Shown here piece after piece: positions 7,547-35,466 of a DNA stretch of 37,113 nucleotides. The stretch lies in the NCBI GenBank assembly GCA_009779355.1, contig WREK01000006.1:1-37113 (forward strand), written 5' to 3'. The notes beneath the pieces are model-generated. The model worked only from the letters and a program-made list of their open reading frames with translations, did no database searches and had not been told where the DNA came from. A program made the position numbers and the translations under genes. This stretch comes from Betaproteobacteria bacterium. GTDB taxonomy: Bacteria > Pseudomonadota > Gammaproteobacteria > Burkholderiales > Rhodocyclaceae. Each line of letters opens with the position of its first letter. The stretch's first letter is position 1.

Positions 7547-7551
7547 CGCTA

Positions 7552-11849: not shown

Positions 11850-11868
11850 GTCCCCGATTGACTCGCCC

Positions 11869-11896
11869 TTGTTTTCTGTACCAAATTTGGTACAAT
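11869..11896 (+). promoter_or_regulatory. Promoter with palindromic operator for the HigBA-like module
   Basis: A -35-like TTGTTT (11869-11874) and a -10-like TACAAT (11891-11896) are 16 bases apart. A perfect 18-bp palindrome, TGTACCAAATTTGGTACA (11877-11894), fills the spacer and overlaps the -10 box, seven bases before the toxin ATG at 11903. This is the layout expected of an autorepressed TA promoter bound by the XRE antitoxin. Confidence 0.6.
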
Positions 11897-11902
11897 CATC
11901 AC

Positions 11903-12248
11903 ATGAATCCCATAATCCTTGATGTTCGCTTCTTTCAGACGGAATCTGGCGCGGAGCCGGTGCGTGATTGGCTGAAAGCGTTGCCGCCGCCGACACGCCG
12001 AGCCATCGGCGAAGACCTGAAGACCGTGCAATTCGGCTGGCCTCTTGGAATGCCACTAGTGCGGAAAATGGAAAAGGATTTGTGGGAAGTGCGTGTTCAC
12101 TTGGAGAGGCAGGTCGCGCGGGTGATAGTTCACCGTGGCGGGCAGCGTGATGGTGTTGCTGCACGGGTTCATCAAAAAATCCGCCGCAACGCCGAAAGAC
12201 GATCTGGCACTGGCCAAGAGCCGACTCAAACAGTTAAGGAGTCAATGA
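11903..12248 (+). pseudogene. higB: HigB-like (RelE/ParE superfamily, Gp49-like) toxin, frameshifted
   Basis: The first ~75 residues read as a Gp49/HigB-type mRNA-interferase toxin (FFQTESGAEPVRDWL, KDLWEVRVHLE, ending RVI). After codon ATA (12125-12127) the family sequence continues only in the +1 frame: from 12129 it reads FTVAGSVMVLLHGFIKKS and ends SRLKQLRSQ with TGA at 12246-12248. One extra base near 12128 therefore breaks the gene; without it the product would be 114 residues. As written, the ribosome runs on in frame into the antitoxin, giving one long ORF. Either the toxin is inactivated or the base is a sequencing error; a programmed shift is less likely because no slippery site is seen. 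Confidence 0.8.
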
Positions 12249-12532
12249 TGAAGAACAAGTATATCGGCAGTAGCCTCGACACCTTTTTTAAAGAGGAAGC
12301 CATGCTGGAAGAGGTCACTGCTGTGGCGGTGAAGCGGGCGCTTGCCTGGCAGATCGAGAACGAGATGGAGGCACAGAAACTGACCAAGACAGCCTTGGCA
12401 AAAAGGATGCATACCAGTCGTTCGGCGCTGAATCGTCTGCTCGATGAGAGCGACACCAGCCTGACACTGACCACACTAGCCAGCGCCGCTGCCGCACTCG
12501 GTAAAACTGTGAAGATAGAGTTGGTGGCTTAG
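12245..12532 (+). CDS. higA: XRE-family HigA-like antitoxin
   Basis: This 95-residue helix-turn-helix antitoxin would bind the HigB-like toxin and repress the module. The HTH is visible at about residues 55-80: KLTKTALAKRMHTSRSALNR, followed by LTTLASAAAALGKTVKIEL. Start ATG 12245 overlaps the toxin's restored TGA (12246-12248); ATG 12248 is also possible. An AAGGAG site lies at about 12236-12241. The gene is intact while the toxin is not. It and the toxin separate two parts of the APE operon. Confidence 0.87.
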   Translation: MMKNKYIGSSLDTFFKEEAMLEEVTAVAVKRALAWQIENEMEAQKLTKTALAKRMHTSRSALNRLLDESDTSLTLTTLASAAAALGKTVKIELVA

Positions 12533-12748
12533 TTCCCGATAGTTGCCACTGCTACAATACACAATCTGTGCAAGTGTAAATTTCAATCCACGCCCGTACC
12601 CGGGCGACAAAAGCGCTTGAAAGAGGTTACGCCTCTCCCAAGCGAGATTATCCCCCTAAAGGGGGAGGTTTCTAACCGCGGTTTGTTTTTGATGAAACCT
12701 CCGACATCACCGTTTTCGACGCCTCCCAATGGTTGCTGCCACGCGTCT
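12533..12748. other. Non-coding gap inside the APE operon
   Basis: No convincing gene is present. It holds the CRISPR-repeat-like sequence at 12580-12608 and a small hairpin, TCCCCCTAAAGGGGGA (12651-12666), that lacks a U-tract. The ORF-track extension of the next gene back to 12617 has no ribosome site and no family match, so it is treated as untranslated. Confidence 0.6.
12580..12608 (-). repeat. Solitary sequence resembling a type I-C CRISPR repeat
   Basis: On the minus strand the stretch reads GTCGCCCGGGTACGGGCGTG followed by GATTGAAA. This fits the general form of type I-C repeats (GTCGCCC...GGGCGTGGATTGAAAC), including the terminal ATTGAAA, with one mismatch at the very end. There is only one copy in the window, no spacers and no cas gene. 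It is a relic or chance match, not an array. Confidence 0.5.
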
Positions 12749-13300
12749 ATGGGCTGGCGCGGTGCCCGTTTCGTTTTGCTGGCAGCGCTGGGGCTGGCTG
12801 GCTGTGCTTCTTTCTGGCTTTCCGGGGGTTTGCCGCTGCTGAAAATTTCTCCGGCGACATTCGGGTCGCGGATCATTGAGCAGCGGTCGGCCATCGTCTG
12901 GCCTGGCGAACAAAGAGTGCTGGAGATGGTGCTCGATATCCATGGCGGCACAATGACCGTGATCGGCCTGACGTTTGGTGCGCGCTTGTTCAGCTTTGAT
13001 TACGATGGCGAGAAAATCGTCGAAACGCAGCCGTTGCCCAGCGGTTTGTCTGCCAGGCGCATCGTAAACGACCTGTTGCTGATATACGCGCCGCTTGACG
13101 CCCTGCGTGTCGCGCTGCCAGCCGACTGGACAGTCCATGAAGAACAAGGGGGGCGGCAAGTATTTTTTGACGGAGCGCTCAACATTTCCATTCACTATGA
13201 CGAAGGCGCAAAGTGGCAGGGGCGTACCGTGCTTGACAACCATGCGTTGCACTATCAACTGACGCTCGATAGCCGTGAGGCGGAAGACGATGCGCCCTAG
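12749..13300 (+). CDS. Outer-membrane lipoprotein of the APE cluster (DUF3261-like)
   Basis: This 183-residue lipoprotein has a lipobox LAALGLAGC with Cys19 as the lipidation site when ATG 12749 is used; the longer ORF-track form would bury the signal peptide. The rest is a mostly beta-rich domain of the DUF3261 type seen in APE loci, probably helping deliver the polyene to the outer membrane (apeN by order, an inference). It lies about 0.9 kb after the exporter gene because a TA module and a non-coding gap intervene. It overlaps the ketosynthase gene by 11 bases. Confidence 0.8.
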   Translation: MGWRGARFVLLAALGLAGCASFWLSGGLPLLKISPATFGSRIIEQRSAIVWPGEQRVLEMVLDIHGGTMTVIGLTFGARLFSFDYDGEKIVETQPLPSGLSARRIVNDLLLIYAPLDALRVALPADWTVHEEQGGRQVFFDGALNISIHYDEGAKWQGRTVLDNHALHYQLTLDSREAEDDAP

Positions 13301-14477
13301 CCCGATCATACTGCTGCCGCCTGCGGTTGCCTGCGCGTTGGGCGACGGGTTGGAAAATGTCCGCGAAGCATTGTTCTCCGGGCGCAGCCCAGGTATGCGC
13401 CGTAGCAACGCCTACAGCCCGGGGCGGGTTCTGACGCTTGGGCATGCCGATACGCCGTTGCCCTCACTCGATGCTTTTCCGGTTCCCCAAAGGTCGCGCA
13501 ACAATGCCTTGCTGCTGGCGGCTTTCGCGCAGGTTGAACCCTCATTCCGGGAACTGGCGCGCGACATCCCGGCGCACCGTATCGCCGTGGTTCTTGGCAC
13601 CAGCACGTCTGGCATTGGCGAGAGCGAAACCGCCATCCAGCACTATTGCCGCGATTTTCCCGAAGGCTATCACTACAGCCAGCAGGAATTCGGTTCCCCG
13701 GCCCGGATGCTTGCCGGATATCTTGGTTGCACCGGCCCTACCTACAGTGTTTCAACCGCCTGCACATCGAGCGCCAAGGCGCTGATCAGCGGTGCACGGC
13801 TGTTGCGCGCCGGTCTGGCCGATCTGGTGGTTGCAGGGGGAGCCGACACGCTCACCCGTTTCACCATCGCCGGGTTCTCTTCGCTCGAAGCGGTTAGTGA
13901 AACGCCCTGCCTACCGTTTTCGGCTAACCGTTGCGGCATCAATATTGGTGAGGCAGCGGCGCTGTTTCTGATGCGGCGGCAAGCCGCCGGGGACGAACAC
14001 GCGGTCACATTGGCGGGCTGGGGCGAAGCGTCCGACGGCCATCACATTTCGGCGCCCGATCCCAACGGCGCCGGCGCGTCGAGCGCCATTCTCGAAGCGC
14101 TGGCCCGTGCCGATTGCCCGGCAGCCGATATCGGTTACATCAACCTGCACGGCACGGCCACGCGCCATAACGACGCGATGGAAAGCCGTGTCGTCTCAAG
14201 GCTCTTCCCCCATTGCCCGGCCAGCAGCACCAAGCCGCTGACTGGGCATACGCTTGGCGCCGCAGGGGCACTGGAAGCGGTGCTGACCTGGCTGACGCTG
14301 ACCGATAGCGCACATCGCCTGCCGCCGCACCTGTGGGACGGTATCCAGGATCCGGACGATCCGGCATTGCCGCTGGTCGCGCTGCATGCGCACGCCTGCT
14401 CGCCGGTACGGGCGGCGCTATCTACCTCATTTGCCTTCGGCGGCAGCAACACCGCACTGATACTCAAAACAACTTGA
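13290..14477 (+). CDS. apeO: APE beta-ketoacyl-ACP synthase (partner of the chain-length factor)
   Basis: This 395-residue ketosynthase extends the polyene chain by decarboxylative condensation on ACP. The full catalytic set is visible: Cys158 in STACTSSAK, His287 in LHGTATRHND and His320 in KPLTGHTLGAAGALE. ATG 13290 is preferred to the GTG at 13275 because it gives the natural MRPSPIILLPP start; it overlaps the lipoprotein gene by 11 bases. In the characterised APE system the ketosynthase acts as a heterodimer with the short chain-length factor, here the first gene of the locus. The gap to the dehydratase is only 12 bases. Confidence 0.9.
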   Translation: MRPSPIILLPPAVACALGDGLENVREALFSGRSPGMRRSNAYSPGRVLTLGHADTPLPSLDAFPVPQRSRNNALLLAAFAQVEPSFRELARDIPAHRIAVVLGTSTSGIGESETAIQHYCRDFPEGYHYSQQEFGSPARMLAGYLGCTGPTYSVSTACTSSAKALISGARLLRAGLADLVVAGGADTLTRFTIAGFSSLEAVSETPCLPFSANRCGINIGEAAALFLMRRQAAGDEHAVTLAGWGEASDGHHISAPDPNGAGASSAILEALARADCPAADIGYINLHGTATRHNDAMESRVVSRLFPHCPASSTKPLTGHTLGAAGALEAVLTWLTLTDSAHRLPPHLWDGIQDPDDPALPLVALHAHACSPVRAALSTSFAFGGSNTALILKTT

Positions 14478-14489
14478 CGTCTCCTTACC

Positions 14490-14972
14490 ATGAGCTATCG
14501 CCCAATTGTTGATTATTTGCCGCACCGGCCACCGATGGTGCTGCTTGACCGTGTCGTTGAAATCACCGGGACATGTGCCGTTTGTGAAGTCACTATTCGG
14601 GTCGACAGCCCGTTTTGTGACGGTTGCGCCGTCCCCGGTTGGGTCGGCATCGAATACATGGCGCAAACCGTCGGCGTCCTGGCCGGTTGGCAGGCGCAGG
14701 CGAAACAGTTGCCGGTCAAGGTCGGGTTCCTGGCCGGGACGCGCCATTATCAAAGTCATGTGTCACAGTTCCGTGTCGGCGACGTATTGCGCATCACCGC
14801 CGATGAGGAAATGATGTCCGCTGACAGCTTGTCCGCCATGCGCTGCATGCTGCACGACGCTGCCAGTACGCTGCTTGCCGAAGCTTCCTTGCTGGTGTTT
14901 CAGCCCGATAACCTGGAAGCTTCCCTGCAACAGGCTTCAACCCTCCCCGAGAATGCTTCGGCGCTACAATAA
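14490..14972 (+). CDS. apeP: APE hotdog dehydratase
   Basis: This 160-residue FabA/FabZ-like hotdog protein begins IVDYLPHRPPMVLLDRVVEI, the usual dehydratase N-terminus with an HRPPMxLLD motif. It carries a GWVGIEYMAQTVGVLAGW helix, where an acidic residue (Glu in GIEYMAQ) is expected at the active site. In the studied APE system two dehydratase subunits act together; the other is the C-terminal domain of the ligase gene. It dehydrates 3-hydroxyacyl intermediates to create the conjugated double bonds. Its TAA overlaps the ketoreductase ATG by one base. Confidence 0.88.
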   Translation: MSYRPIVDYLPHRPPMVLLDRVVEITGTCAVCEVTIRVDSPFCDGCAVPGWVGIEYMAQTVGVLAGWQAQAKQLPVKVGFLAGTRHYQSHVSQFRVGDVLRITADEEMMSADSLSAMRCMLHDAASTLLAEASLLVFQPDNLEASLQQASTLPENASALQ

Positions 14973-15736
14973 TGCACTTCCCCGATCAGAAAACCGGCAT
15001 GCCCCCATCTTCCCCCAGAACCGTACTGGTCACTGGCGCCAGCCGTGGCATTGGCCGTGCCGTTGCCCTGCGTCTGGCGCAGGACGGGTTCGATATCGTT
15101 GTCCATTGCCGCAACCAGCGCGCCCAGGCCGAAGCCGTTATCGAAGCCATCATTGCCCAGGGGCAGCAAGCCCGGCTGCTAATGTTCAACATCGCCGACC
15201 GCGAAGCGGCCCGTCAGGCGCTGGAAACTGATATCGCTACGCACGGTGTCTATTACGGGGTGGTGTGCAACGCCGGCGTAACTGCTGACAATGCCTTTCC
15301 GGCCATGCCCGCCGACGACTGGGATCGGGTGCTCGAAACCGATCTCGACAGCTTTTACAACATCCTTCACCCCTTAACCATGCCAATGGTACAGACGCGC
15401 CGTCCTGGCCGCATCGTCACGTTGTCGTCGGTTTCTGGCATCTCCGGCAACCGCGGGCAGGTCAATTACAGTGCCGCCAAGGCTGGCATCATCGGTGCTA
15501 CCAAAGCCCTGGCGCTGGAATTGGCAAAACGGCAAATCACCGTTAATTGCGTTGCGCCCGGCCTGATCGACACTGGGATGGTGTCGCCGGAAGTAGTCGA
15601 ACATGCTATGCCTGCTATCCCTTTGCGGCGCATCGGCCAGCCTGAGGAAGTTGCGGCTGTCGTCGCCTTTTTGATGCGTGATGACGCTGCCTACATCACC
15701 CGGCAGGTTATTTCCGTCGATGGAGGCATGCTATGA
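14972..15736 (+). CDS. apeQ: APE 3-oxoacyl-ACP reductase (FabG-like)
   Basis: This 254-residue short-chain dehydrogenase reduces the 3-keto group with NADPH. Motifs are complete: the cofactor loop TGASRGIG, NAGV, catalytic Ser in SSVSGISG, YSAAK with the catalytic Tyr-Lys pair, and the C-terminal ISVDGGML. ATG 14972 overlaps the previous stop (TAATG); an internal ATG at 15001 would drop the ten-residue leader MHFPDQKTGM. It overlaps the second ketosynthase gene through ATGA. A housekeeping FabG role is possible but unlikely given the location. Confidence 0.9.
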   Translation: MHFPDQKTGMPPSSPRTVLVTGASRGIGRAVALRLAQDGFDIVVHCRNQRAQAEAVIEAIIAQGQQARLLMFNIADREAARQALETDIATHGVYYGVVCNAGVTADNAFPAMPADDWDRVLETDLDSFYNILHPLTMPMVQTRRPGRIVTLSSVSGISGNRGQVNYSAAKAGIIGATKALALELAKRQITVNCVAPGLIDTGMVSPEVVEHAMPAIPLRRIGQPEEVAAVVAFLMRDDAAYITRQVISVDGGML

Positions 15737-16965
15737 ACCGCGCCCGAGTCGTCGTCACCGGCATGGCCGGCATCAGCCCGGTCGGTAACAACTGGGTGGA
15801 TGTCGAACGCGCCCTGCGCGCCCGCAAGAACGCTGTCCGTCATATGGACGAGTGGGACGATATCGCCGGGCTCAATACCCGTCTCGGTGCGCCCGCCGCA
15901 CCGTTTGAACTGCCGGGGCACTATTCCCGCAAGCGCACCCGCAGCATGGGCCGTGTTGCCCTGGTAGCGTGCCTTGCCAGCGAGTGGGCGCTTGCCGATG
16001 CAGGCTTGCTCAACCATCCGGTGCTGACGTCGGGACGAACCGGCGTATCCTACGGCTCCTCGATCGGTGAGCCTGCCGCAGTCACTGATTTCGCACAACT
16101 TATCAAAAACCGCTCGCTCGACGGCCTCAACGCCAACAGTTACCTGCGGATGATGGCGCACACCGCACCGGTCAATATCGCCGTCTTTTTCGGGCTGACC
16201 GGCCGGGTCATCACCACATCGAGCGCCTGTACTTCTGGCAGCCAGGGCATCGGCTACGCCTATGAGGCCATCCGTTACGGCCACGCCGACGTGATGATCG
16301 CCGGTGGCTCTGAAGAACTGTGCCCGTCGGAAGCGGCGGTTTTTGACGCCCTGTTTGCCACCAGCACCCGCAACGACGCGCCCGCTTCGTCGCCGCGCCC
16401 ATACGACCGCGACCGCGACGGGCTGGTGATCGGCGAAGGCGCCGGCACGCTGATCCTCGAAGAGCTTGAGCATGCCCGCGCCCGCGGCGCCCGGATATAC
16501 GCCGAAATCGTCGGTTACGGAACCAACTGCGACGGCGCGCACGTTACCCAGCCGCGCGCCGAGACCATGACCATCGCTATCCGATTGGCACTCGCTGACG
16601 CCGACCTTCCGGCTGAGGCCATCGGTTACGTCAACGGCCACGGCACGGCCACCGAATTGGGCGACATCGCGGAAAGCATCGCTACGCATACTGTTTTCGG
16701 CGAGAAGATGCCCATTTCGTCGTTGAAGAGCTACATAGGGCATACTCTGGGCGCTGCTGGCGCTCTCGAAGCATGGATGACGGTCGAGATGATGCGATCC
16801 GGCTGGTTTGCGCCAACGCTGAACCTGAATCAGGTCGACCCGCGTTGCGCGCCGCTCGATTATGTGCGTGACGATGGATGCACACGCGATTGCGAATACA
16901 CGATGAGCAATAATTTTGCGTTTGGCGGCATCAACACATCATTGATCTTCAAACGATGGGATTGA
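15733..16965 (+). CDS. apeR: Second APE beta-ketoacyl-ACP synthase
   Basis: This 410-residue ketosynthase has an intact triad: Cys166 in SSACTSGSQGI, His303 in VNGHGTATELGD and His337 in KSYIGHTLGAAGALE. It is clearly different in sequence from the other ketosynthase. In the studied APE system this enzyme is a homodimer thought to act early in chain building. It ends the enzymatic part of the operon; the ATGA overlap links it to the ketoreductase. No truncation is seen. Confidence 0.9.
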   Translation: MNRARVVVTGMAGISPVGNNWVDVERALRARKNAVRHMDEWDDIAGLNTRLGAPAAPFELPGHYSRKRTRSMGRVALVACLASEWALADAGLLNHPVLTSGRTGVSYGSSIGEPAAVTDFAQLIKNRSLDGLNANSYLRMMAHTAPVNIAVFFGLTGRVITTSSACTSGSQGIGYAYEAIRYGHADVMIAGGSEELCPSEAAVFDALFATSTRNDAPASSPRPYDRDRDGLVIGEGAGTLILEELEHARARGARIYAEIVGYGTNCDGAHVTQPRAETMTIAIRLALADADLPAEAIGYVNGHGTATELGDIAESIATHTVFGEKMPISSLKSYIGHTLGAAGALEAWMTVEMMRSGWFAPTLNLNQVDPRCAPLDYVRDDGCTRDCEYTMSNNFAFGGINTSLIFKRWD

Positions 16966-18775: not shown

Positions 18776-18826
18776 AATCAGGGACAGACCCAAATTACCA
18801 AGGGTAATTTGGGTCTGTCCCTGATT
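18776..18826. repeat. Perfect 24-bp inverted repeat hairpin
   Basis: Arms 18776-18799 (starting AATCAGGGACAGACCC) and 18803-18826 are exact reverse complements around a 3-base AAG loop. It is 50 bases after the CsgG-like gene and could act as a terminator-like hairpin, but the symmetric arms without a U-tract fit a dispersed MITE-like unit better. Shorter TGTCCCC-containing hairpins recur at about 22459 and 22574. Confidence 0.85.
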
Positions 18827-18866
18827 GCAATTTCCAGTTATACAACCATGTTTAATGCCGATTACA

Positions 18867-18932
18867 CTTTGACGAATCTGGATGAAATATGATGAAATCC
18901 GTACCTATTTGCCTTGGCAGAGCGAAGCAACA
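18867..18932 (+). promoter_or_regulatory. Conserved leader of the vgrG genes, copy A
   Basis: The 66 bases before vgrG1 contain TTGACGAATCTGGATGAAAT and continue ATGATGAAATCCG. The same leader stands before vgrG2 (copy C, about 22610-22674) and as an orphan (copy B, 22485-22532). The shared part suggests duplication together with the genes, and maybe a common control signal. TTGAC and TATGAT are 13 bases apart, too short for a normal sigma-70 promoter, so the function is open. Confidence 0.5.
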
Positions 18933-21059
18933 ATGAACCGCGATTTGATAGCGCACACCCCTTTGGGGGAAGCTTGGTGGGCGGTGAGCATGACTGGCCA
19001 CGAGGCGTTGGGGGAACTCTACGAATTCCGTGTAGGGCTGAAATCGGACGACCCGGACATTGACACCCAGTCACTGCTGGGGGAAGTGGCGGCGGTCGAA
19101 CTCATCGCGCAAGGGGGGCTTTCGCGTTACTTTTCCGGGCAGATCGTCAAGGTTTCGGCCCTTGGCCTGAGTGGCCGCCACTGGGCGTACGAAGTGACGC
19201 TGGCCCCGAAACTGTGGCTCGCGACCCGGCGCTCGGACTATCGGATCTGGCAGCAGCAGAGCGTGCGCGAGATTGCCAATGCGGTATTGCAAGCGAACGC
19301 GCTACGTTGCGAATGGCAGCTTAAGAACACCTACAAGACATGGGAATACCTGGTTCAGTATGGGGAGACCGACTTTGCCTTCCTGTCGCGCCTGTTCGAG
19401 CGCGAAGGCATCTATTACTGGTTCGAGCACGGGCTGGACGGGGAAAAGATGGTTCTCGGGGATCACTTCTCCATCCACGAAGCGTTTGGCGGATACAAGC
19501 AAATTCCCTTCTACATGCCGGGTTCCGAGGGGGTGTCTGATGAAGACCACTACGATGGCTGGGCCGCCTCGCGCGAACCGGAACCGGGCCGCTTCAAGCA
19601 CACGGACTACGATTTCCAGCATCCATCGCTGGACTTGACCACTGAATACAGCGACCCGCGCGGGCATCTGTTCGACCAATGCGAAATCTACGCCTACCCA
19701 GGCGGCTACACCGAGACATCCGACGGCAAGGCGTACGCCACGACAAGGCGCGAAGCCCTGCAAAAGGAGCAGGACGTCACCGAGCTAGAAGGCTCCGTGC
19801 GGGGGGCAATGCCCGGTTACAGCTTTACGCTCTACAACCATCCGCGCGCGGATCAGAACCGTGACTACCTGATCACGCGTGCGCGCTACGAAGTGCGCAT
19901 CCACGACTACGAAACCACGCCGGATGCCAACGAGCAGACCTGCCGGATGCGCATTGGGGCCATCCCGGCGGATCGGCAGTTCCGTCCCGGCGCCTGGACG
20001 CCGAAGCCGTGCGTGCGCGGCCCGGAAACGGCGGTGGTGGTAGGCCCCGAGGGCAGCGAGATCCACACTGACCAATACGGGCGGGTAAAAGTGCACTTTC
20101 CCTGGGATCGCTACGGGGCGCGTGACGGTTCCGACACGTGCTGGATACGGGTTTCCACGACTTGGGCGGGCAGGGGTTTTGGGGCGATCTCGATCCCGCG
20201 CGTCGGGCACGAAGTCATCATCGACTACGAGCATGGCAACCCGGATCGGCCCATCATCATCGGGCAGGTCTATAACGCCGAGGAGATGCCGCCCTGGGAA
20301 CTGCCTGCGAACAAAACCCAGTCGGGCGTCCTGAGCCGCTCCAGCATACTGGGTTCGCCTGACAACGCCAATGCGCTACGGTTCGATGACGCCAAGGGCA
20401 ATGAACAGGTCTGGCTGCATGCCGAACGCAACCAGGACATTGAAGTCGAAGCCGATGAGACGCACTGGGTCGGCAAAGACCGTACAAAGACCATCGACGG
20501 AAACGAAACGACTACCGTTCACAAGAACCGTACTGAGACCGTCGACGGCAACGAAACGATCACCATCCACCAGGATCGCACGAAAACGGTTGATGGCACC
20601 GAGACCAGCAAGATCAAGAAGAACAAGGCTGAAACCATCATGCTTGCCTCGGTACAAAGTGTCGGCGCTGCGCGGATGGACAACGTCGGCCTCGCCTACA
20701 ACCTGAACGTCGGCGCGGCGCAGGTCAACATCATCGGTGGCCTTTACAGCCTGGACGTCGGGCGGAAAATGATAACCATTGTTGGTAATGCTCAGGAAAC
20801 TATCGTCCAGAAAGGGGATCAGGAGGTTACCGTCCAGCAAGGGAACCAAAAGATTACCGTCGTGAGCGGAAAACAGACGACCTATGCCGCCAGGAAGATC
20901 CGGTTTGAGGCAGGCGATGAGGATATTACGCTGGTCTGTGGTGACGCCAATATCGTAGTCGCTCCGGATTCGATTGTCCTGAAAGCAGGGGGGGCTGAGG
21001 TGATGATCAACAAAGCGGGCGTTACAGTGAACGGCACCAAGATCCTTTTGAGTGGCTGA
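18933..21059 (+). CDS. vgrG: VgrG spike protein 1 (T6SS TssI)
   Basis: This 708-residue protein is a VgrG trimer subunit, the spike at the tip of the T6SS tube. The N-terminal gp27-like part opens MNRDLIAHTPLGEAWW; the gp5-like region includes GPEGSEIHTDQYGRVKVHFP and ISIPRVGHEVIIDYEHGNPD. A C-terminal beta-helix follows from about residue 500, with repeats such as TKTIDGNET and TETVDGNET. ATG 18933 is chosen because all three VgrG copies begin there; the track start at 18882 lies in the leader. Its C-terminal ~240 residues differ from those of copies 2 and 3, so it may carry different cargo. No T6SS structural gene is nearby. Confidence 0.93.
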   Translation: MNRDLIAHTPLGEAWWAVSMTGHEALGELYEFRVGLKSDDPDIDTQSLLGEVAAVELIAQGGLSRYFSGQIVKVSALGLSGRHWAYEVTLAPKLWLATRRSDYRIWQQQSVREIANAVLQANALRCEWQLKNTYKTWEYLVQYGETDFAFLSRLFEREGIYYWFEHGLDGEKMVLGDHFSIHEAFGGYKQIPFYMPGSEGVSDEDHYDGWAASREPEPGRFKHTDYDFQHPSLDLTTEYSDPRGHLFDQCEIYAYPGGYTETSDGKAYATTRREALQKEQDVTELEGSVRGAMPGYSFTLYNHPRADQNRDYLITRARYEVRIHDYETTPDANEQTCRMRIGAIPADRQFRPGAWTPKPCVRGPETAVVVGPEGSEIHTDQYGRVKVHFPWDRYGARDGSDTCWIRVSTTWAGRGFGAISIPRVGHEVIIDYEHGNPDRPIIIGQVYNAEEMPPWELPANKTQSGVLSRSSILGSPDNANALRFDDAKGNEQVWLHAERNQDIEVEADETHWVGKDRTKTIDGNETTTVHKNRTETVDGNETITIHQDRTKTVDGTETSKIKKNKAETIMLASVQSVGAARMDNVGLAYNLNVGAAQVNIIGGLYSLDVGRKMITIVGNAQETIVQKGDQEVTVQQGNQKITVVSGKQTTYAARKIRFEAGDEDITLVCGDANIVVAPDSIVLKAGGAEVMINKAGVTVNGTKILLSG

Positions 21060-21147
21060 ACGGTACCGTATGCCGATGGCTCCAGCCTAGCCCGCTGTCG
21101 CGAAGACCCGGAACCCGGTAGAAAAACGGATTGTCGTGCGCCTGGTT

Positions 21148-22428
21148 TTACCGTCGCGCCGGCGACCGGACGTCGATGATCTCCGCGCCTTTTTTGTGGC
21201 GCTCCAGATGCGCTGCTGCGAGCCAGCGTAAATCATGTGGCGATTCGCGCAACAGCGCCCGCAAATCGAGCTCGTTTACCGGGTGCCCCAGCAACACCTG
21301 TTTTCCAACGGGAAGCGGTGGCTCCGCTCCCACAACAGCCTTGGCGTTGGGCATGGGCAAGCCGAGGTCGATGTCATCGGTTTTCCATTCATTTTCATCC
21401 AGCACTTCATCATCATCGTCTCTGTCTTCGTCGAACAGTTCCAGCGGGCTGTTTTCGATGTTTATGCCGGTCAGCGATGACCATACCCATCCTGCATAAC
21501 GCGCGCAGCTTGGGACGTTCAGGTATTGGCGTACCCTGGGCAGCCATGCCGGATCGCCATGATGGAGGATAAGCAGCAGAACTTGACGGGAGGGCAAAAA
21601 ATCCAGCAGATCCTCGATTTCCTCACTACCTGGAGGTGACGCAATGCCCAGATAACGAATCCAGCGTTCTATCCGGCTTGGGGCCTGGGTGAGTGGGTCG
21701 ACGCGCAAGCCTTCGCTGGAACCGAACTCGCTCACAGCCTTGTGCAGCAATGGCAAACCTTTGAGATCGCCAGTACGCAGGAGCGCGATAGCGGCTTCTG
21801 CTGCAACCGTTGTTTCACTGTCTTTCAGAAGGTCTGTGACCCGTTCCGTTTGGCGAAGGCGGAAACTGGCGCGACAAGCTGCCGCACGGACGAACGCACT
21901 CGGATGTTCGAGCGCTAACGTCAATTGGGATGAAAGTGATTTGTCGGAGTCCTCGAAGAAGCCATCGCCGCGGGCAAGCACCCGCCATGCTGCGACCTGA
22001 CAAAGCTCATCATCAGAATGCCCCCACTTTTTGACGAGTTCGAGCTTGCGTTCCTGTGTTTGCCATAATGCTGCACCGATCAATGCGCGCAAATAGGTTG
22101 CGGGTTTGTCCTGCAACATCGACCATACCGGATCCAGTTGTTTTTCATACCCACGTTCAAGACCCAGCGTGGCGCAAACGAAAAGTTCTCCGTCTCTTTT
22201 CCAGTCGTCGAGCACTTCAATCGCCAACTCCCAACCCGCTTTCCCCGCCACGCGTACGCCTTCCAGATGGGCTTCGAGTGCGTTGTCGAAAAGAAGCTGC
22301 GCTTGCCAGTTGAGTATCGGCGAATGAGCGAACAAGTCGCGACGTTTCCAGTAAAACGCCGCATCGGTAATATGCTGTTCGACCAAGGGAGAAATGATTG
22401 CTCGCGAGAATTCGTCTATGACATTCAT
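21148..22428 (-). CDS. HEAT-repeat-like TIGR02270-family protein
   Basis: This 426-residue protein is convergent to vgrG1. It matches the TIGR02270 family, typical of T6SS cargo islands: a helical N-terminal half with repeated A-rich helices (LALEHPSAFVRAAACRASF, TVAAEAAIALLRTGD). A low-complexity acidic stretch, DEDRDDDDEVLDENE, lies around residue 333. It may be an adaptor for VgrG loading or an accessory protein; the role is not established. ATG 22428 has no clear ribosome site. The region between its stop and vgrG1's stop (88 bases) has no clear terminator. Confidence 0.78.
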   Translation of the reverse strand: MNVIDEFSRAIISPLVEQHITDAAFYWKRRDLFAHSPILNWQAQLLFDNALEAHLEGVRVAGKAGWELAIEVLDDWKRDGELFVCATLGLERGYEKQLDPVWSMLQDKPATYLRALIGAALWQTQERKLELVKKWGHSDDELCQVAAWRVLARGDGFFEDSDKSLSSQLTLALEHPSAFVRAAACRASFRLRQTERVTDLLKDSETTVAAEAAIALLRTGDLKGLPLLHKAVSEFGSSEGLRVDPLTQAPSRIERWIRYLGIASPPGSEEIEDLLDFLPSRQVLLLILHHGDPAWLPRVRQYLNVPSCARYAGWVWSSLTGINIENSPLELFDEDRDDDDEVLDENEWKTDDIDLGLPMPNAKAVVGAEPPLPVGKQVLLGHPVNELDLRALLRESPHDLRWLAAAHLERHKKGAEIIDVRSPARR

Positions 22429-22674
22429 ATTGGAATGGTACGGCGTAATGAATTAGAGCCTGTCCCCGATTATACCGGATTATTCTTTGACGAATCTGGA
22501 TGAAATATGATGAAATTCATTTCCATTTGTCTATTGCACAAAAACAATCGTGCTCAGATCGCAATCGCAGAATCGGGGGCTGTCCCCGGTCATGGATATG
22601 CCAAAAGATATTGACAAATTTGTATGAAATATGATGGAATCCGTCTCTGTTTGCCTTGACAAAGCGAAGCGACC
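22429..22674. other. Gap with an orphan vgrG leader (copy B) and the vgrG2 leader (copy C)
   Basis: No gene is visible. Copy B (22485-22532) keeps TTGACGAATCTGGATGAAAT nearly identical to copy A but has no vgrG after it. Copy C (about 22610-22674) is a diverged version (TTGACAAATTTGTATGAAAT) right before vgrG2. Two TGTCCCC hairpin fragments (about 22459 and 22574) lie around copy B. The layout suggests a lost or recombined vgrG copy. Confidence 0.6.
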
Positions 22675-24858
22675 ATGAACCGCGAATTGATAGCGCACAC
22701 CCCTTTGGGGGAAGCTTGGTGGGCGGTGAGCATAACCGGCCACGAGGCGCTGGGGGAACTCTACGAATTCCGTGTAGGGCTGGTATCGGACGACCCGGAC
22801 ATTGACACCCAGTCTCTGCTGGGGGAAGTGGCGGCGGTCGAACTCATCGCGCAAGGGGGGCGTTCGCGCTACTTTTCCGGGCATATCGTCAAGGTTTCGG
22901 CCCTTGGCCTAAGTGGCCGCCACTGGGCGTACGAAGTGACGCTGGCCCCAAAGCTGTGGCACGCGACCCGGCGCTCGGACTATCGGATCTGGCAGCAGCA
23001 GAGCGTACGCGAGATTGCCAATCAGGTATTGCAAGCGAACGCGCTGCGTTGCGAATGGCGGCTTAAGAACGCCTGCAAGACATGGGAATATCTGGTTCAG
23101 TACGGGGAAACCGACTTTGCTTTTCTGTCGCGGCTGTTCGAGCACGAAGGCATCTATTATTGGTTCGAGCACAGGCTGGACGGGGAAAAGATGATCCTCG
23201 TGGATCACTTCTCCATCCACGAAGCGTTTGATGGATACGAGCAGATCCCCTTCTACACGCCGAATTCCGGGTGGGTGTCTGATGAAGAGCATTACGATGA
23301 CTGGTGCGCCTCGCGCGAGCCGGAGCCGGGCCGCTTCAAACACACGGACTACGATTTCCAGCACCCGTCGCAGGATCTGACCACCGAATACAGCGACCCG
23401 CGCGGGCATCTGTTCGACCAATACGAAATCTACGCCTACCCAGGCGGGTACACCGAGACGTCCGACGGCAGGGCGTACGCCGCAACAAGGCTCGAAGCCC
23501 TGCAAAAGGAGCAGGACGTCACCGAACTCGGCGGTCCCGTGCGGGGAGCAATGCCCGGTTACCGGTTTACGCTCTACAACCATCCGCGCGCGGATCAGAA
23601 CCGCGACTACCTGATCACGCGTGCGCGCTACGAAGTGCGCATCAACGACTACGAAACCACGCCGGATGCCGACGAGCAGACCTGCCGGATGCGCATCGGG
23701 GCCATCCCGGCGGATCGGCAGTTCCGCCCCGGCACCTGGACGCCGAAGCCGTGCGTGCGCGGCCCGGAAACGGCGGTGGTGGTGGGCCCCGGGGGCAGCG
23801 AGATCCACACCGACAAATACGGGCGTGTGAAGGTGCACTTCCCCTGGGACCGCTACGGTGCGCGCGACGGTTCCGACACATGCTGGATACGGGTTTCCAC
23901 GACCTGGGCGGGCAAGGGCTTCGGGGCGGTCTCGATCCCGCGCGTCGGTCACGAGGTCATCATCGACTACGAGCATGGGGACCCGGACCGGCCCATCATC
24001 ATCGGGCAGGTCTACAACGCCGAGACAATGCCGCCCTGGGAACTGCCTTCGGGCAAGGTGCACTCGGGCCTGATGTCGCGCTCGACGCCGGGCGGCTCGG
24101 AAGGCAACACGCTGCGCTTCGACGACACGTCCGGGGCCGAGCAGTTCATGATGCACGCGCAGTACAACATGGACACCAACGTCAACAATGACGAAAGCCA
24201 CACGGTGGGGGCGAACCGCACGACGAGCATCACGGACGACGAAACCTGCGCAGTGGAGGGCAAACGCGACACAACGGTGACGGGCGACGAGACGCTGACT
24301 TGCTCGGCCAACCGGGATAAGACGGTTGTGGGTGATGAGACTTGTTCGACTACCAAAACACGCACCACCAACGTAACCGGCAATGAAACCCTGATTTGTG
24401 CAGCGGACCGGCAAAAAACGATCGATGGCGACGAGAGCAATAATTTTGTGGGAAACCGGGAGAAAAAAGTTGGTGGCTCCGAGGGCGTTGAAATTGGTGA
24501 AGATTCTTCGATTTTTTCCGGGCCGCTTACATATAAGGTGCTCGGTGGCCTGCGGCAAGAGGACGTGGGGGGAGGGCATCAGGTTGGAGTCGACGAAAAC
24601 ATGACTACGAAAGCGGCAAACTATACTGTTACAGCTACCTCGCATTCTGTTACGGCTAAGACCGCAGTTACGGTCAACGCTTCGGTCATTACGCTCAAGG
24701 CTGGTCCCGCGTTGATTCGGATGGATAACTCTGGCATCACGATTGTCGGTTTGATGGAAGATGGCGAGGCAATGGGTGCAAGAAACTTCCTTTCCAGTCT
24801 GGAAAGCGCCATAAGCAAATCGAACGATGTGCAGTCATCCGTGAACAGCGTCAACTAA
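22675..24858 (+). CDS. vgrG: VgrG spike protein 2
   Basis: This 727-residue VgrG begins MNRELIAHTPLGEAWW and is nearly identical to copies 1 and 3 through the gp27- and gp5-like parts (to about residue 460). From there it follows copy 3 (GLMSRSTPGGSEGN, then repeated TVTGDET-type units), and after about residue 590 it has its own tail ending SSVNSVN. The long minus-strand ORF 22909-24645 is a codon-bias shadow. It is followed 43 bases later by vgrG3. The shared part probably results from recent duplication or gene conversion. Confidence 0.93.
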   Translation: MNRELIAHTPLGEAWWAVSITGHEALGELYEFRVGLVSDDPDIDTQSLLGEVAAVELIAQGGRSRYFSGHIVKVSALGLSGRHWAYEVTLAPKLWHATRRSDYRIWQQQSVREIANQVLQANALRCEWRLKNACKTWEYLVQYGETDFAFLSRLFEHEGIYYWFEHRLDGEKMILVDHFSIHEAFDGYEQIPFYTPNSGWVSDEEHYDDWCASREPEPGRFKHTDYDFQHPSQDLTTEYSDPRGHLFDQYEIYAYPGGYTETSDGRAYAATRLEALQKEQDVTELGGPVRGAMPGYRFTLYNHPRADQNRDYLITRARYEVRINDYETTPDADEQTCRMRIGAIPADRQFRPGTWTPKPCVRGPETAVVVGPGGSEIHTDKYGRVKVHFPWDRYGARDGSDTCWIRVSTTWAGKGFGAVSIPRVGHEVIIDYEHGDPDRPIIIGQVYNAETMPPWELPSGKVHSGLMSRSTPGGSEGNTLRFDDTSGAEQFMMHAQYNMDTNVNNDESHTVGANRTTSITDDETCAVEGKRDTTVTGDETLTCSANRDKTVVGDETCSTTKTRTTNVTGNETLICAADRQKTIDGDESNNFVGNREKKVGGSEGVEIGEDSSIFSGPLTYKVLGGLRQEDVGGGHQVGVDENMTTKAANYTVTATSHSVTAKTAVTVNASVITLKAGPALIRMDNSGITIVGLMEDGEAMGARNFLSSLESAISKSNDVQSSVNSVN

Positions 24859-24901
24859 ACGTTTTTTTATCGATGCCTTTATTTTCGAGGAACAGCAAAC
24901 C

Positions 24902-27082
24902 ATGAACCGCGAATTGATAGCGCACACCCCATTGGGGAAAGCCTGGTGGGCGATAAGCGTCACCGGCCACGAGGCGCTTGGTGAGCTGTACGAATTCCGC
25001 GTAGGGCTGCTGTCGGACAGCCCGGACATCGACACCCAGTCGCTGCTTGGGGAAGTGGCGGCGGTCGAGCTCCTCGCGCAAGGGGGCCTGCCGCGCTGGT
25101 TTTCCGGCCAGGTCGTCAAGGTGTCGGCCCTGGGGCTGCGCGGCCTCCACTGGGAGTACGAAGTGGTGCTGGCCCCGAAGCTGTGGCACGCGACCCGCCG
25201 CTCGGACTACCGGATCTGGCAGCAGCAGAGCGTGCGCGAGATCGCCAACCAAGTATTGCAGGCGAACGCGCTGCGCTGCGAATGGCGGCTGAAGGACACC
25301 TACAGGACCTGGGAATACCTGGTCCAGTACGGGGAGACCGACTTTGCCTTCCTGTCGCGGCTGTTCGAGCGCGAAGGCATCTATTACTGGTTCGAGCACG
25401 GCCTGGACGGGGAAAAGATGGTCCTCGGGGACCACTTCTCCATCCACGAAGCGTTTGGCGGGTACGAGCAGGTTCCCTTCCGCACGCCGGGTTCCGGGTG
25501 GGTGCCCGATGAAGACCATTACGATGGCTGGGCCGCCTCGCGCGAGCCGGAGCCGGGCCGGTTCAAACACACGGACTACGATTTCCAGCACCCGTCGCAG
25601 GACCTGACCACCGAATACAGCGACCCGCGCGGGCACCTGTTCGACCAATACGAAATCTACGCCTACCCTGGCGGGTACACCGAGGTGCCCGACGGCAAGG
25701 CATACGCGACGGCAAGGCTCGAGGCCCTGCAAAAGGAGCAGGACGTCACCGAACTCGAAGGCCCCGTGCGGGGCGCGATGCCCGGGTACCGGTTTACGCT
25801 CTACAACCACCCGCGCGCGGACCAGAACCGCGACTACCTGATCACGCGAGCGCGCTACGAAGTGCGCATCAACGACTATGAAACCACGCCGGATGCCGAC
25901 GAGCAGACCTGCCGGATGCGCATTGGGGCCATCCCTGCGGAGCGGCAGTACCGCCCCGGCACCTGGACGCCGAAGCCGTGCGTGCGCGGCCCGGAAACGG
26001 CGGTGGTGGTGGGTCCCGAGGGCAGCGAGATCCACACCGACAAATACGGGCGCGTGAAGGTGCACTTCCCCTGGGACCGCTACGGTGCGCGCGACGGTTC
26101 CGACACGTGCTGGATACGGGTTTCCACGACCTGGGCGGGTAGGGGCTTCGGGGCGGTCTCGATCCCGCGCGTCGGTCACGAAGTCATCATCGACTACGAG
26201 CATGGGGACCCGGACCGGCCCATCATCATCGGGCAGGTCTACAACGCCGAGACGATGCCGCCCTGGGAACTGCCTTCGGGCAAGGTGCAGTCGGGCCTGA
26301 TGTCGCGCTCGACGCCGGGCGGCTCGGAAGGCAACGCGCTGCGCTTCGACGACACGACCGGGGCCGAGCAGTTCATGATGCACGCGCAGTACAACATGGA
26401 CACCGACGTCAACAACGACGAAAGCCACACGGTGGGGGCGAACCGCACGACAAACATTGGGGCTGACGATACCTGCGCAGTGGAGGGCAAACGCGACACA
26501 ACGGTGACGGGCGACGAGATGCTGACCTGTTCATCCAACCGGACGAAGACGATCGAGGGCGACGAGTCTTGTTCGACTGGTGGGACACGCACCACTACCG
26601 TAACCGGCGATGAAACCCTGATTTGCGAAGCGGATAGGGAAAAAACTGTTACGGGAAATGAAACGAGCAATATCACTGGCGACCGGGTAAAGATCGTTGG
26701 CGGGTCGGAAGAATCTACTATTACAGGCACTTCGGATGTCACGATCAAAGGTGCGAGCATACACAGTGTAGACGGTGACCGTAGCGATGAGGTATCCGGC
26801 TGTTATAACCTGACAATCACTGGCGACATGAGCACTTCAGCAGTGGATCACAGCGTGGAAGCCACCAACCACACCGTCAATGCCAAGACAGCTACGCTTG
26901 ACGGCAGTTCTTCGGTCACACTGAACGCGGGCATCTCAAGTATTTCGATCAGCCCTGTGGGTATTACTTTGTCGTGCCCGGTGCTTACGGTATTGGCCGC
27001 TACGGTGAATTACTCTGGCGCTGCGGCGAGCAGTTCATCCCTGATGAACATTATTAAGTCGGGAAGGGTCAGTTACAAGTGA
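24902..27082 (+). CDS. vgrG: VgrG spike protein 3
   Basis: This 726-residue VgrG has the same body and its own tail (SITGTSDVTIKG-like repeats, ending SLMNIIKSGRVSYK). ATG 24902 has GAGGAA upstream. The tail repeats include TTVTGDEMLTCSSNR and TTVTGDETLICEADR, a ~15-residue beta-helix period. Its stop overlaps the start of the next gene (GTGA), so it leads the cargo operon DUF6484-DUF2169-KS-like-PAAR-like-Rhs. It is the most likely spike for the Rhs toxin below. The minus-strand 525-residue ORF here is a shadow. Confidence 0.93.
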   Translation: MNRELIAHTPLGKAWWAISVTGHEALGELYEFRVGLLSDSPDIDTQSLLGEVAAVELLAQGGLPRWFSGQVVKVSALGLRGLHWEYEVVLAPKLWHATRRSDYRIWQQQSVREIANQVLQANALRCEWRLKDTYRTWEYLVQYGETDFAFLSRLFEREGIYYWFEHGLDGEKMVLGDHFSIHEAFGGYEQVPFRTPGSGWVPDEDHYDGWAASREPEPGRFKHTDYDFQHPSQDLTTEYSDPRGHLFDQYEIYAYPGGYTEVPDGKAYATARLEALQKEQDVTELEGPVRGAMPGYRFTLYNHPRADQNRDYLITRARYEVRINDYETTPDADEQTCRMRIGAIPAERQYRPGTWTPKPCVRGPETAVVVGPEGSEIHTDKYGRVKVHFPWDRYGARDGSDTCWIRVSTTWAGRGFGAVSIPRVGHEVIIDYEHGDPDRPIIIGQVYNAETMPPWELPSGKVQSGLMSRSTPGGSEGNALRFDDTTGAEQFMMHAQYNMDTDVNNDESHTVGANRTTNIGADDTCAVEGKRDTTVTGDEMLTCSSNRTKTIEGDESCSTGGTRTTTVTGDETLICEADREKTVTGNETSNITGDRVKIVGGSEESTITGTSDVTIKGASIHSVDGDRSDEVSGCYNLTITGDMSTSAVDHSVEATNHTVNAKTATLDGSSSVTLNAGISSISISPVGITLSCPVLTVLAATVNYSGAAASSSSLMNIIKSGRVSYK

Positions 27083-27603
27083 TTAAAATGGATCCCAAAC
27101 CAGAACGATCATCCTCTGTTGCAACTGACGAAACGCCGTTGGAAACCCTGTTGCAACGCCCTGCCGCTTTGCCGGAGCGGGTCGATGGCATTCTCGTTGG
27201 CCACGTAGACAAAATTACTCCGGACGGTTCTCCCTGTGTGGCCATCGAGGCGTTCGGACTTGCCGGAGTCCTTGCCGCCAGCCTGACACCCATCGCCGAA
27301 GAACACATCGGAAAAAAAGTTGCGCTCGGTTTCGAGGCAGGCAATCCGCGCCGCCCGATCATCCTCGGCCTGATGTTCGAACCCGCGCAGTGGGAAGCGG
27401 CCTCAAGTGATCCCGCGTCTTTGAACGTCACGCACGAGGATGGCCGCTGCGTTGTTTCGGCCGAGGACGAACTCGAACTGCGCTGCGGTGAAGCGCTCAT
27501 CCGGCTCCGCGCGGACGGGCGCATCTATCTGCGCGGCCAATACATTACCAGCCATGCCGACGTCGGTCAGCGCATACGCGGTGGCTCGGTGCAGATCAAC
27601 TAA
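27079..27603 (+). CDS. DUF6484-like T6SS cargo-island protein
   Basis: This 174-residue protein of unknown role is found next to vgrG in cargo islands. It is recognised by position and by the pattern VDGILVGHVDKITPDGSPCV followed by GNPRRPIILGLMFEP, echoing the VgrG gp5-like region. The C-terminus has short beta-rich segments (ELRCGEALIRLRADGRIYLRG) like a mini beta-helix. The GTG at 27079 overlaps the vgrG3 stop; ATG 27088 is an alternative. It may cap or extend the spike, but this is inference. Confidence 0.7.
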   Translation: MIKMDPKPERSSSVATDETPLETLLQRPAALPERVDGILVGHVDKITPDGSPCVAIEAFGLAGVLAASLTPIAEEHIGKKVALGFEAGNPRRPIILGLMFEPAQWEAASSDPASLNVTHEDGRCVVSAEDELELRCGEALIRLRADGRIYLRGQYITSHADVGQRIRGGSVQIN

Positions 27604-27614
27604 AGGGTACGTGC

Positions 27615-28655
27615 ATGGAGTGGACGATTCCTGCCAGGTTTCTTTTTGATGCTTTCACCGCGTATGACGTGAGTGGGTACGAGCATTTGGTGACCATCGT
27701 CAAAGCTACCTGGCAGATTCCCACTGGCGACCACCCACCTTACCCGATCATCCCGCCGCCGCCGTTCTGCATAGCCGACGAATTCCATGGAGAGGCGGGG
27801 CTGTCGCCCATGCGCTATGGCTCTGATTACTTCCGTTTTAAATCTCGTTGCGATGTGCTGTTCGACTCAGTCGCGCATGCCCCTGACGGAAAACCTGTAC
27901 CCAGGCTCGATGTATCCGTCCAAGTTGGCAACTGGCGCAAGAAGCTTCGTGTGCACGGCGACCGTAAATGGCAGCATGGGTTAGTGGGCCTGACACCTGG
28001 CGAGGCAGAGCCGTTCGTTTCCATACCCCTGCATTTTGGGCGCGCTTTCGGCGGTAGCCGCGAATACGGGAATGACAAACGGTGCGAGTCCCTGCTGTCC
28101 AATCCTTCCGGCATCGGCTGGGGGGGGCCGCACACTTGGCACAAACTGAAAGGAGAACCTGTCCCAAACCTGGAATACCCGAATGATCCGATACTCGATC
28201 CCCAGGGCGGGCATCGTCCCGCCGCGCTCAGTGCCGTGCCCGGTCATTGGGATCCACGCCGACGTTATACCGGAACCTATGACGATGCTTGGCGGCGTGA
28301 TAGAAGCCCGCTTCTACCTGATGATTTTGACGAACGCTTTTACCAGAGCGCGCCGGAAGATCAGCAACTCTCCTACCCCCATGGCGGTGAGCAGGTCGTT
28401 TTACGCAACTTGCTTGCCCGTGCGGAAGAAGTCAGTTTCAAGCTGCCGCCGCTGGCGGGAATCAAACTGCATGTGACGCGCAACGACGATAGCGTCCAGA
28501 CGCTCGATGCGTATCCCGACACGCTATTCTTTGAGACCGAATCGAACCGTTTTTCCGTGATCTGGCGCGCAAGCGCGCTGCTACGGAGAAACTTGATCGA
28601 GGTGGACGAAATTGAACTCGACGCGCCGGACGAGTTGTTGGAGGTGGCGGCATGA
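27615..28655 (+). CDS. DUF2169-family T6SS accessory protein
   Basis: This 346-residue protein has the DUF2169 hallmarks: HLVTIVKATWQIP near the N-terminus, DVLFDSVAHAPDG and the HFGRAFGG block followed by NPSGIGWGG. In known loci DUF2169 proteins sit between vgrG and toxin genes and are thought to act as adaptors that load the effector. It lies 11 bases after the DUF6484-like gene and overlaps the KS-like gene through ATGA. No catalytic motif or signal peptide is visible, so it probably stays in the cytoplasm. Confidence 0.85.
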   Translation: MEWTIPARFLFDAFTAYDVSGYEHLVTIVKATWQIPTGDHPPYPIIPPPPFCIADEFHGEAGLSPMRYGSDYFRFKSRCDVLFDSVAHAPDGKPVPRLDVSVQVGNWRKKLRVHGDRKWQHGLVGLTPGEAEPFVSIPLHFGRAFGGSREYGNDKRCESLLSNPSGIGWGGPHTWHKLKGEPVPNLEYPNDPILDPQGGHRPAALSAVPGHWDPRRRYTGTYDDAWRRDRSPLLPDDFDERFYQSAPEDQQLSYPHGGEQVVLRNLLARAEEVSFKLPPLAGIKLHVTRNDDSVQTLDAYPDTLFFETESNRFSVIWRASALLRRNLIEVDEIELDAPDELLEVAA

Positions 28656-29713
28656 GCGGACGCCAGACATTCCGGTCATCCCAACCCTTGCGCGTCGTAG
28701 CGCGAGGCGCCTGCTGCTCCCTGGGCTTTTCCGCACCATCCGTTGTTGCAGCGATGCGTGCCTGCCTCTGCCGCTATGCCCCCACAGATTTCCTGGACGA
28801 TGAGAAAGGGCGTATTCCCGGTGCCATGTTGTTTCAAGTCCCGATAACCGGAAGAGAACGGCTGTTGTACATGTACCGTTCGGCGGTGGGCGAATGCCTG
28901 TCGGCGCTGCCGCATGAGCCGGATCAACCCCTGCCGCCGTTCATCGTGCTGGGCGGCGAAGGCGATGGTGAACACGGCCGATGGCAGGCGGAACAGATGG
29001 ACTGGCTGCTGGATGCGTACCGCCCTGAAGATGGGCATGACCCGCGCACGCGGCACGTTTGCGCGGGCAAGGCGGGCATTGCCGAGGGGCTGCTTGCGGC
29101 GCGCGAGATTCTTACCGCGCCAGACGCGCCGGAATACGTGATTGTTGCGGGCGTAGACAGTTTTCTGGAGCCTGAAACGTTCATTCGTTTTATGAATGCG
29201 CGCCGGATATTCAGTTTCACGAATTCGGACGGTTTTGTTCCGGGCGAAGCAGGTACGGCCATTGCGCTGTCCGCCCGTTCCGATGGCACGCCCGGGTTAT
29301 GGATCGAAGGGGTAGGGCAAGGCCATGAACCGGCATCGCCCGAATCCAACGAAGTCCCTCTGTTCGCGCGTGGTTTGACCGACGCTTTGCGTGCCGCCGC
29401 TGATGATGCCGGCCTGCAACCGTGGGATTATGCTTTTCATGCCAGTGCAGTGACGGGTGAGCAGTGGTACTACAAGGAAACCTCACTCGCTGTCAGCCGG
29501 TTCTTTGCACAAAACGTGCCGGAACCTGCGCCGGAAATCGGCACAGGGCTGATTTGCCGGACGACGGGCGAAATCGGTGCGGCAAGCGGTCCGTTGGGGC
29601 TTGCCTGGGCGGAGCGCGAAATGGCGCATGGCACGCTGGGCACACGGGGGCTGCTGCATTTTTCCAACCATAACGGCCAGCGTGCGGCGCTGGCGGTGAA
29701 TTACCGGGTTTGA
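28652..29713 (+). CDS. Ketosynthase/thiolase-fold T6SS accessory protein
   Basis: This 353-residue protein has a thiolase-like fold resembling beta-ketoacyl synthases: VVARGACCSLGF at the N-terminus, an AGKAGIAEGLLAAREIL helix, YVIVAGVDSFLEPETF and NSDGFVPGEAGTAIAL. The CTS/CSS active-site motif of true ketosynthases is absent; only a CAGKAG cysteine sits near that position, and the HGTAT and GHTLGAAG histidine motifs are not seen. It is therefore probably a non-enzymatic adaptor, as seen with similar genes in T6SS cargo islands. It is unrelated in function to the APE ketosynthases upstream. The ATGA overlap ties it to DUF2169. Confidence 0.75.
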   Translation: MSGRQTFRSSQPLRVVARGACCSLGFSAPSVVAAMRACLCRYAPTDFLDDEKGRIPGAMLFQVPITGRERLLYMYRSAVGECLSALPHEPDQPLPPFIVLGGEGDGEHGRWQAEQMDWLLDAYRPEDGHDPRTRHVCAGKAGIAEGLLAAREILTAPDAPEYVIVAGVDSFLEPETFIRFMNARRIFSFTNSDGFVPGEAGTAIALSARSDGTPGLWIEGVGQGHEPASPESNEVPLFARGLTDALRAAADDAGLQPWDYAFHASAVTGEQWYYKETSLAVSRFFAQNVPEPAPEIGTGLICRTTGEIGAASGPLGLAWAEREMAHGTLGTRGLLHFSNHNGQRAALAVNYRV

Positions 29714-29728
29714 ATCGGAGAAACGAAC

Positions 29729-30187
29729 ATGGGAGCCAAAGTAACGATCAATGACCGGGACCTTGCCAGCAAGAGGACGAACGGTAGCGCGGTGGGATTC
29801 CCGAATCCCTGTTGGACGGTTCCACCCCCGCCGAAACCGATTACATACCCCAGCGCCAGGAATAACGCCACTATCAAGAGTGGCACCTGTACCGTCCTCC
29901 ACAGGGGGAAGACGATTGCCGTCTTTCCGCGAGCCTGCTGCGGCAAAAGCGTCGGGGACTTGGCTGCGCTGCCGATATCCGGCCCGAAGTGGGGGGTTGT
30001 GACAAGCGCCAACCAGGACAGCGGCTATTTTGGTGCCGGGTCGAACAACACGTTCATGGAATGCGGGTGTACCTGCCGGATGGGCGACATTTCGACGGGC
30101 AACCAAAAATGCATGGTGCTGACGAACGCGCCGCCAACGCCCTGGATAGCGGGCGGCGGCTGCCCGGATGGCAACTGTAAAGCCTGA
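29729..30187 (+). CDS. PAAR-like (DUF4150) spike-tip protein
   Basis: This 152-residue cysteine-rich protein matches the PAAR-like DUF4150 family, which sharpens the VgrG tip and carries effectors. Motifs include SAVGFPNPCWTVPPPPKP, FPRACCGKSVGD and the C-terminal CGCTCRMGDISTGNQKC. ATG 29729 has CGGAG upstream. It ends 21 bases before the Rhs start. Here the PAAR-like part is a separate gene, which explains why the Rhs protein begins directly with its core domain. Confidence 0.82.
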   Translation: MGAKVTINDRDLASKRTNGSAVGFPNPCWTVPPPPKPITYPSARNNATIKSGTCTVLHRGKTIAVFPRACCGKSVGDLAALPISGPKWGVVTSANQDSGYFGAGSNNTFMECGCTCRMGDISTGNQKCMVLTNAPPTPWIAGGGCPDGNCKA

Positions 30188-35312: not shown

Positions 35313-35453
35313 GTAGGGCGTGATAAGGCCGAAGGCCGCCATCCGCCGATCCAAACCCTCTGGCGCGAAGCGCCACCATTATCATATTGCGATGCTGCGC
35401 ATCGGTCGATACAATTGTCGGATGGCGCCGCTTCGCGGCTTATCCAACCTACT
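35313..35453. repeat. REP-like repeat unit, left copy
   Basis: About 140 bases made of nested hairpins: TAAGGCCGAAGGCCGCCATC, TGGCGCGAAGCGCCA, GCGATGCTGCGCATCG and the GGCGCCGCTTCGCGGC arm. It is a direct repeat of the segment at 35964-36112, so the transposase gene lies between the two. Confidence 0.8.
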
Positions 35454-35466
35454 TTTGTGTCTGTTT

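What the first reader, a model, noticed from the sequence alone, without database searches (positions are those of the whole stretch)
18867..22674. Conserved vgrG leader with an orphan copy
Three copies of a TTGACRAAT..TGAAATATGATG leader exist: before vgrG1, before vgrG2 and one (22485-22532) without a vgrG, just before the minus-strand TIGR02270-like gene region. The orphan copy is closer to copy A than copy C is. This suggests loss or replacement of a vgrG, and a possible shared control element.
Basis: partly seen in the sequence, partly recalled or inferred. Interest (0 to 1): 0.5.

Follow-up and report, generated by a model that had tools for sequence, protein, structure and literature searches.

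The report
Duplicated vgrG upstream region, tandem copy
Two duplicated genes for the spike tip of a bacterial toxin-injection machine carry the same short upstream DNA, and a third, leftover copy sits beside one of them; it looks like ordinary debris of gene duplication and recombination, possibly a local promoter, not a widespread control element.

Summary
A 30-bp sequence (TTGACRAATYTGKATGAAATATGATGRAAT) occurs three times on the + strand (18869, 22487, 22611), with none expected by chance, and nowhere else in the 2.58-Mb assembly. Copies A and C sit exactly 64 bp before the ATGs of vgrG1 and vgrG2. They are the upstream end of one duplicated block that runs into the coding sequence. Copy B is a shorter relative (55 bp, 85% identical to A) with no vgrG remnant behind it. 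But B does not stand before an empty site: it lies in the 246-bp gap between the divergent TIGR02270-like gene (-) and vgrG2 (+), in tandem with C, 124 bp further upstream of the same vgrG2. The leader is absent from 398 other sampled genomes of the family (21 of the genus) and from the upstream DNA of the nearest named vgrGs, so a conserved vgrG control element is not supported. Relatives carry the TIGR02270-like gene last in a same-strand vgrG-DUF6484-DUF2169-ketosynthase cassette; here it is displaced and inverted, and the vgrGs are mosaic in identity. Best reading: a lineage-specific vgrG upstream region copied by duplication and gene conversion during cassette rearrangement. Any promoter role is local and unproven.

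The parts
18776..18826 (.). 24-nt perfect inverted repeat with 3-nt loop (AATCAGGGACAGACCCAAATTACC), upstream of leader A
   Evidence: (I1)
18860..18914 (+). leader copy A; core 18869-18898 begins 64 bp upstream of the vgrG1 ATG (18933)
18933..21059 (+). vgrG1 (708 aa, TssI/VgrG; an in-frame ATG at 18882 inside the leader is probably not the start, since copy C has a stop codon in that frame)
   Evidence: TIGR03361 E 8.9e-174
21148..22428 (-). TIGR02270-like HEAT-repeat protein, below the family cut-off (109 vs 207 bits); in relatives it closes the vgrG cassette on the same strand, here displaced and inverted
22478..22532 (+). leader copy B ('orphan'); core 22487-22516, 124 bp upstream of core C; 85% identical to A with a 32-bp perfect run
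22602..22656 (+). leader copy C; core 22611-22640 begins 64 bp upstream of the vgrG2 ATG (22675)
22450..22593 (+). span holding the CTGTCCCYG boxes that precede B and C (24-nt repeats 22450-22473 and 22570-22593, 120 bp apart), related to the box preceding A (18805-18828)
   Evidence: (D4)
22675..24858 (+). vgrG2 (727 aa)
   Evidence: TIGR03361 E 7.4e-171
24902..27082 (+). vgrG3 (726 aa), no leader, 43 bp after vgrG2
27079..30187 (+). downstream cassette: DUF6484, DUF2169, ketosynthase-like and PAAR-like proteins

Best explanation
The leader is the lineage-specific upstream region of a vgrG gene, copied when vgrG duplicated. A and C are the left end of one duplicated block, kept similar by recombination or gene conversion between vgrG1 and vgrG2. 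B is a partial extra copy of that upstream region (CTGTCCC box, spacer, TTGAC...ATGAAATATGATGAAAT core) left in tandem ahead of C during local rearrangement of the vgrG cassette, which also displaced and inverted the TIGR02270-like gene. Shown: the copies, their positions, the mosaic identity, the displaced gene and the absence from sampled relatives. Inferred: the mechanism and order of events. A local promoter or operator function driving vgrG1 and vgrG2 is possible (fixed -64 position, A+T-rich, unusually well kept core in B) but unproven.
For: A and C are 90% identical over 150 nt from TTGAC into the coding sequence. vgrG1-vgrG2 identity is 95% over the first 300 nt while either against vgrG3 is 85-87%; vgrG2-vgrG3 identity is 97-98% over 1050-1500 nt, i.e. 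mosaic. B and A share the core plus weaker flanks and a CTGTCCC box. The leader is absent from the rest of the genome, from 398 other family genomes and from the upstream DNA of the nearest named vgrGs. Canonical cassette order with the TIGR02270-like gene last on the same strand in L147-L149.
Against: The 32-bp perfect A-B run inside flanks that are only about 65% identical is unlikely under uniform divergence (p about 0.003; run chosen by inspection), which hints at selection on the core or a separate short conversion. B shows no vgrG coding remnant, and the stretch between B and C does not carry a recognisable copy of the vgrG2 start, so a simple tandem duplication running through the gene start is not seen.
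Confidence: 0.6

Rival explanations
1. The leader is a functional local promoter or regulator-binding site under selection; vgrG2 has two tandem copies (B and C), giving stronger or different control than vgrG1 with one copy.
For: Fixed 64-bp distance to both ATGs, B in tandem with C facing vgrG2, 32-bp perfect A-B core; TTGACR and TATGAT hexamers in all copies and a 10-bp spaced ATGAAAT repeat in A and B (sequence); vgrG islands elsewhere share upstream sites, e.g. RpoN sites in P. aeruginosa (PMC8855297).
Against: The TTGAC and TATGAT hexamers are 13 bp apart, too close for sigma-70; no promoter-like site is called there on the + strand; best sigma-54 match 7 of 11. No other place in the assembly has the motif.
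Confidence: 0.25
2. B is the remnant of a vgrG lost or replaced when the TIGR02270-like gene moved in.
For: B is homologous to vgrG leaders and lies next to a displaced, inverted cassette gene; displacement of modules with orphaned remnants is known in V. cholerae T6SS clusters (PMC5361080).
Against: No vgrG coding remnant after B; B still lies upstream of an intact vgrG2.
Confidence: 0.12
3. The leader is part of a small mobile or REP-like element that inserted three times.
For: A perfect 24-nt inverted repeat upstream of A and CTGTCCC boxes before all three copies.
Against: The leader has no copies elsewhere in the genome; loosely matched CTGTCCC boxes are hardly more frequent than the reversed-pattern control (41 vs 31), and hits elsewhere do not share flanks.
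Confidence: 0.03

Closest known systems
vgrG islands with shared upstream regulatory sites (RpoN/Sfa2, Pseudomonas aeruginosa H2-T6SS; PMC8855297)
   Same: Several vgrG genes of one genome carry a similar upstream sequence.
   Different: No sigma-54 site here; the sequence is confined to one locus and is explained by duplication of the genes themselves.
Recombination-driven mosaicism and module displacement in T6SS clusters (Vibrio cholerae; PMC5361080)
   Same: Mosaic genes, displaced cassette parts and leftovers.
   Different: Here the leftover is a non-coding upstream copy and an inverted accessory gene, not immunity genes.

Membership tests
TssI/VgrG spike proteins (TIGR03361) | Score above the curated cut-off | tested here: met
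   579, 569 and 566 bits for vgrG1, 2 and 3 against a cut-off of 186
TIGR02270 family | Score above the curated cut-off | tested here: not met
   109.4 bits against 206.8, though the match covers nearly the whole profile: a divergent relative
sigma-70 promoter | TTGACA- and TATAAT-like hexamers 16-18 bp apart | tested here: not met
   No site called on the + strand at the leaders; the best pair is 13 bp apart and the 18-bp pair has a poor second hexamer
sigma-54 promoter | TGGCAC-N5-TTGCW | tested here: not met
   Best match 7 of 11 upstream of vgrG1 and vgrG2
conserved vgrG cis-element | Present upstream of vgrG in relatives | tested here: not met
   0 of 398 other family genomes; absent upstream of vgrG in L037-L047 and L055

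The most novel reading that the evidence does not exclude
The leader is a new, lineage-restricted regulator-binding site with 10-bp spaced ATGAAAT repeats that sets vgrG dose by copy number: one copy before vgrG1, two before vgrG2.
Probability: 0.08. Interest if true: 0.4.

Novelty: new member of a known kind. Interest (0 to 1): 0.2.

Why it matters
Modest. It shows how vgrG duplication, gene conversion and cassette rearrangement carry upstream regions along, so that repeated leaders need not mean shared regulation. If the tandem leader is functional, it would be a simple way to tune which spike protein is made.

Tried and rejected
Rfam scan of the window: no match. Search of viral contigs for the leader: none. 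Fuzzy search (up to 7 substitutions) in held relatives: none in the first set and one 6-substitution hit in L147, about 1 kb before its vgrG match and judged chance. REP-like or mobile-element reading: dropped because there are no genome-wide copies of the leader and the CTGTCCC box is near control frequency. Hcp family search of the own genome: no match, so hcp could not be used as a second promoter to compare; tssB, tssC and a tssA-like gene are present on contig C194. A literature search for TIGR02270 with type VI secretion found nothing.

Full report
Observation. The leader consensus occurs at 18869, 22487 and 22611 on the + strand, none expected by chance, and nowhere else in the 2.58-Mb draft assembly. 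Copies A and C each begin 64 bp before the ATG of vgrG1 (18933) and vgrG2 (22675). The gene names hold: all three VgrGs score far above the TIGR03361 cut-off. The genome has only these three vgrG matches to the query, and vgrG3 has no leader.

What copies A and C are. They are not isolated motifs: from TTGAC onward the two loci align without gaps for at least 150 nt at 90% identity, into the coding sequence, and a weaker gapped alignment extends about 20 nt further upstream. Identity between the three genes is mosaic: vgrG1 and vgrG2 agree best at the 5' end (95% over the first 300 nt, against 85-87% for either with vgrG3), vgrG2 and vgrG3 best at 1050-1500 nt (97-98%), and the C-terminal parts diverge. 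That pattern is what duplication followed by recombination or gene conversion leaves (inference).

What copy B is. B matches A over 55 nt (85%), with a 32-bp perfect run. A related CTGTCCC box precedes each of the three copies at a different distance. After about TTTGTCT the similarity to vgrG upstream or coding sequence is not above chance. B lies between the start of the TIGR02270-like gene on the - strand (22428) and copy C, 124 bp from C, and faces vgrG2. It is therefore better described as an upstream tandem copy before vgrG2 than as a leader without a vgrG. The perfect run is longer than expected if the eight differences were scattered at random (p about 0.003, permutation, run chosen by inspection); this can mean selection on the core or a short conversion from A, and the data do not separate these.

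Relatives. The nearest named homologues are MAGs labelled Azoarcus sp., with VgrG N-terminal identities of 63-70%. Where the upstream DNA is held, none carries the leader before vgrG. In 399 genomes of the family, 22 of them of the genus, only this one has it. The relatives G158, G222 and G081 show a regular order vgrG, DUF6484, DUF2169, ketosynthase-like, then the TIGR02270-like gene, all on one strand; weaker relatives in G165 and G187 fit the same order. In the window the first four follow in that order from vgrG3, while the TIGR02270-like gene is inverted between vgrG1 and vgrG2. The locus has therefore been rearranged relative to that order.

Regulation. No sigma-70 site is called on the + strand at the leaders; the good hexamers TTGACR and TATGAT are 13 bp apart. 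The best sigma-54 match is 7 of 11, unlike the RpoN sites before vgrG genes in P. aeruginosa (PMC8855297). A different regulator cannot be excluded. Contig C194 carries tssC (VipB family match) beside ORFs that read as tssB and tssA (identified by reading the translations), so a T6SS is present, but no Hcp match was found, possibly because the assembly is incomplete.

Verdict. A real repeat with a mostly ordinary explanation: copied upstream DNA of a duplicated vgrG, with an extra partial copy from local rearrangement. The conserved-control-element reading fails its conservation test; a local promoter role is open.

Noticed in passing
window 18776-18826: Perfect 24-nt inverted repeat with a 3-nt loop between the CsgG-like gene and leader A; on the - strand it is called terminator-like.
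   Followed up: partly
window 18933-27082: Three vgrG genes with mosaic pairwise identity, suggesting gene conversion among them; the C-terminal parts diverge.
   Followed up: yes
window 21148-22428: TIGR02270-like HEAT-repeat protein is a recurring last gene of vgrG-DUF6484-DUF2169-ketosynthase cassettes in relatives; its role is unknown and it is below the family cut-off here.
   Followed up: partly
window 28652-29713: Ketosynthase-like protein inside the vgrG cassette, conserved in that place in relatives (32-33% identity).
   Followed up: partly
window 2357-16965: Run of acyltransferase-, ketosynthase- and reductase-like genes with a large membrane protein, resembling an aryl polyene-type cluster (judged from reading the translations only).
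   Followed up: no
window 35320-35967: IS200-like (Y1_Tnp) transposase with imperfect flanking repeats of the type GGATAAGGCC...GCCATCCGCCG, REP-associated in appearance.
   Followed up: no
whole assembly G000: No Hcp (PF05638) match although VgrG and TssC are present; may be an assembly gap.
   Followed up: partly
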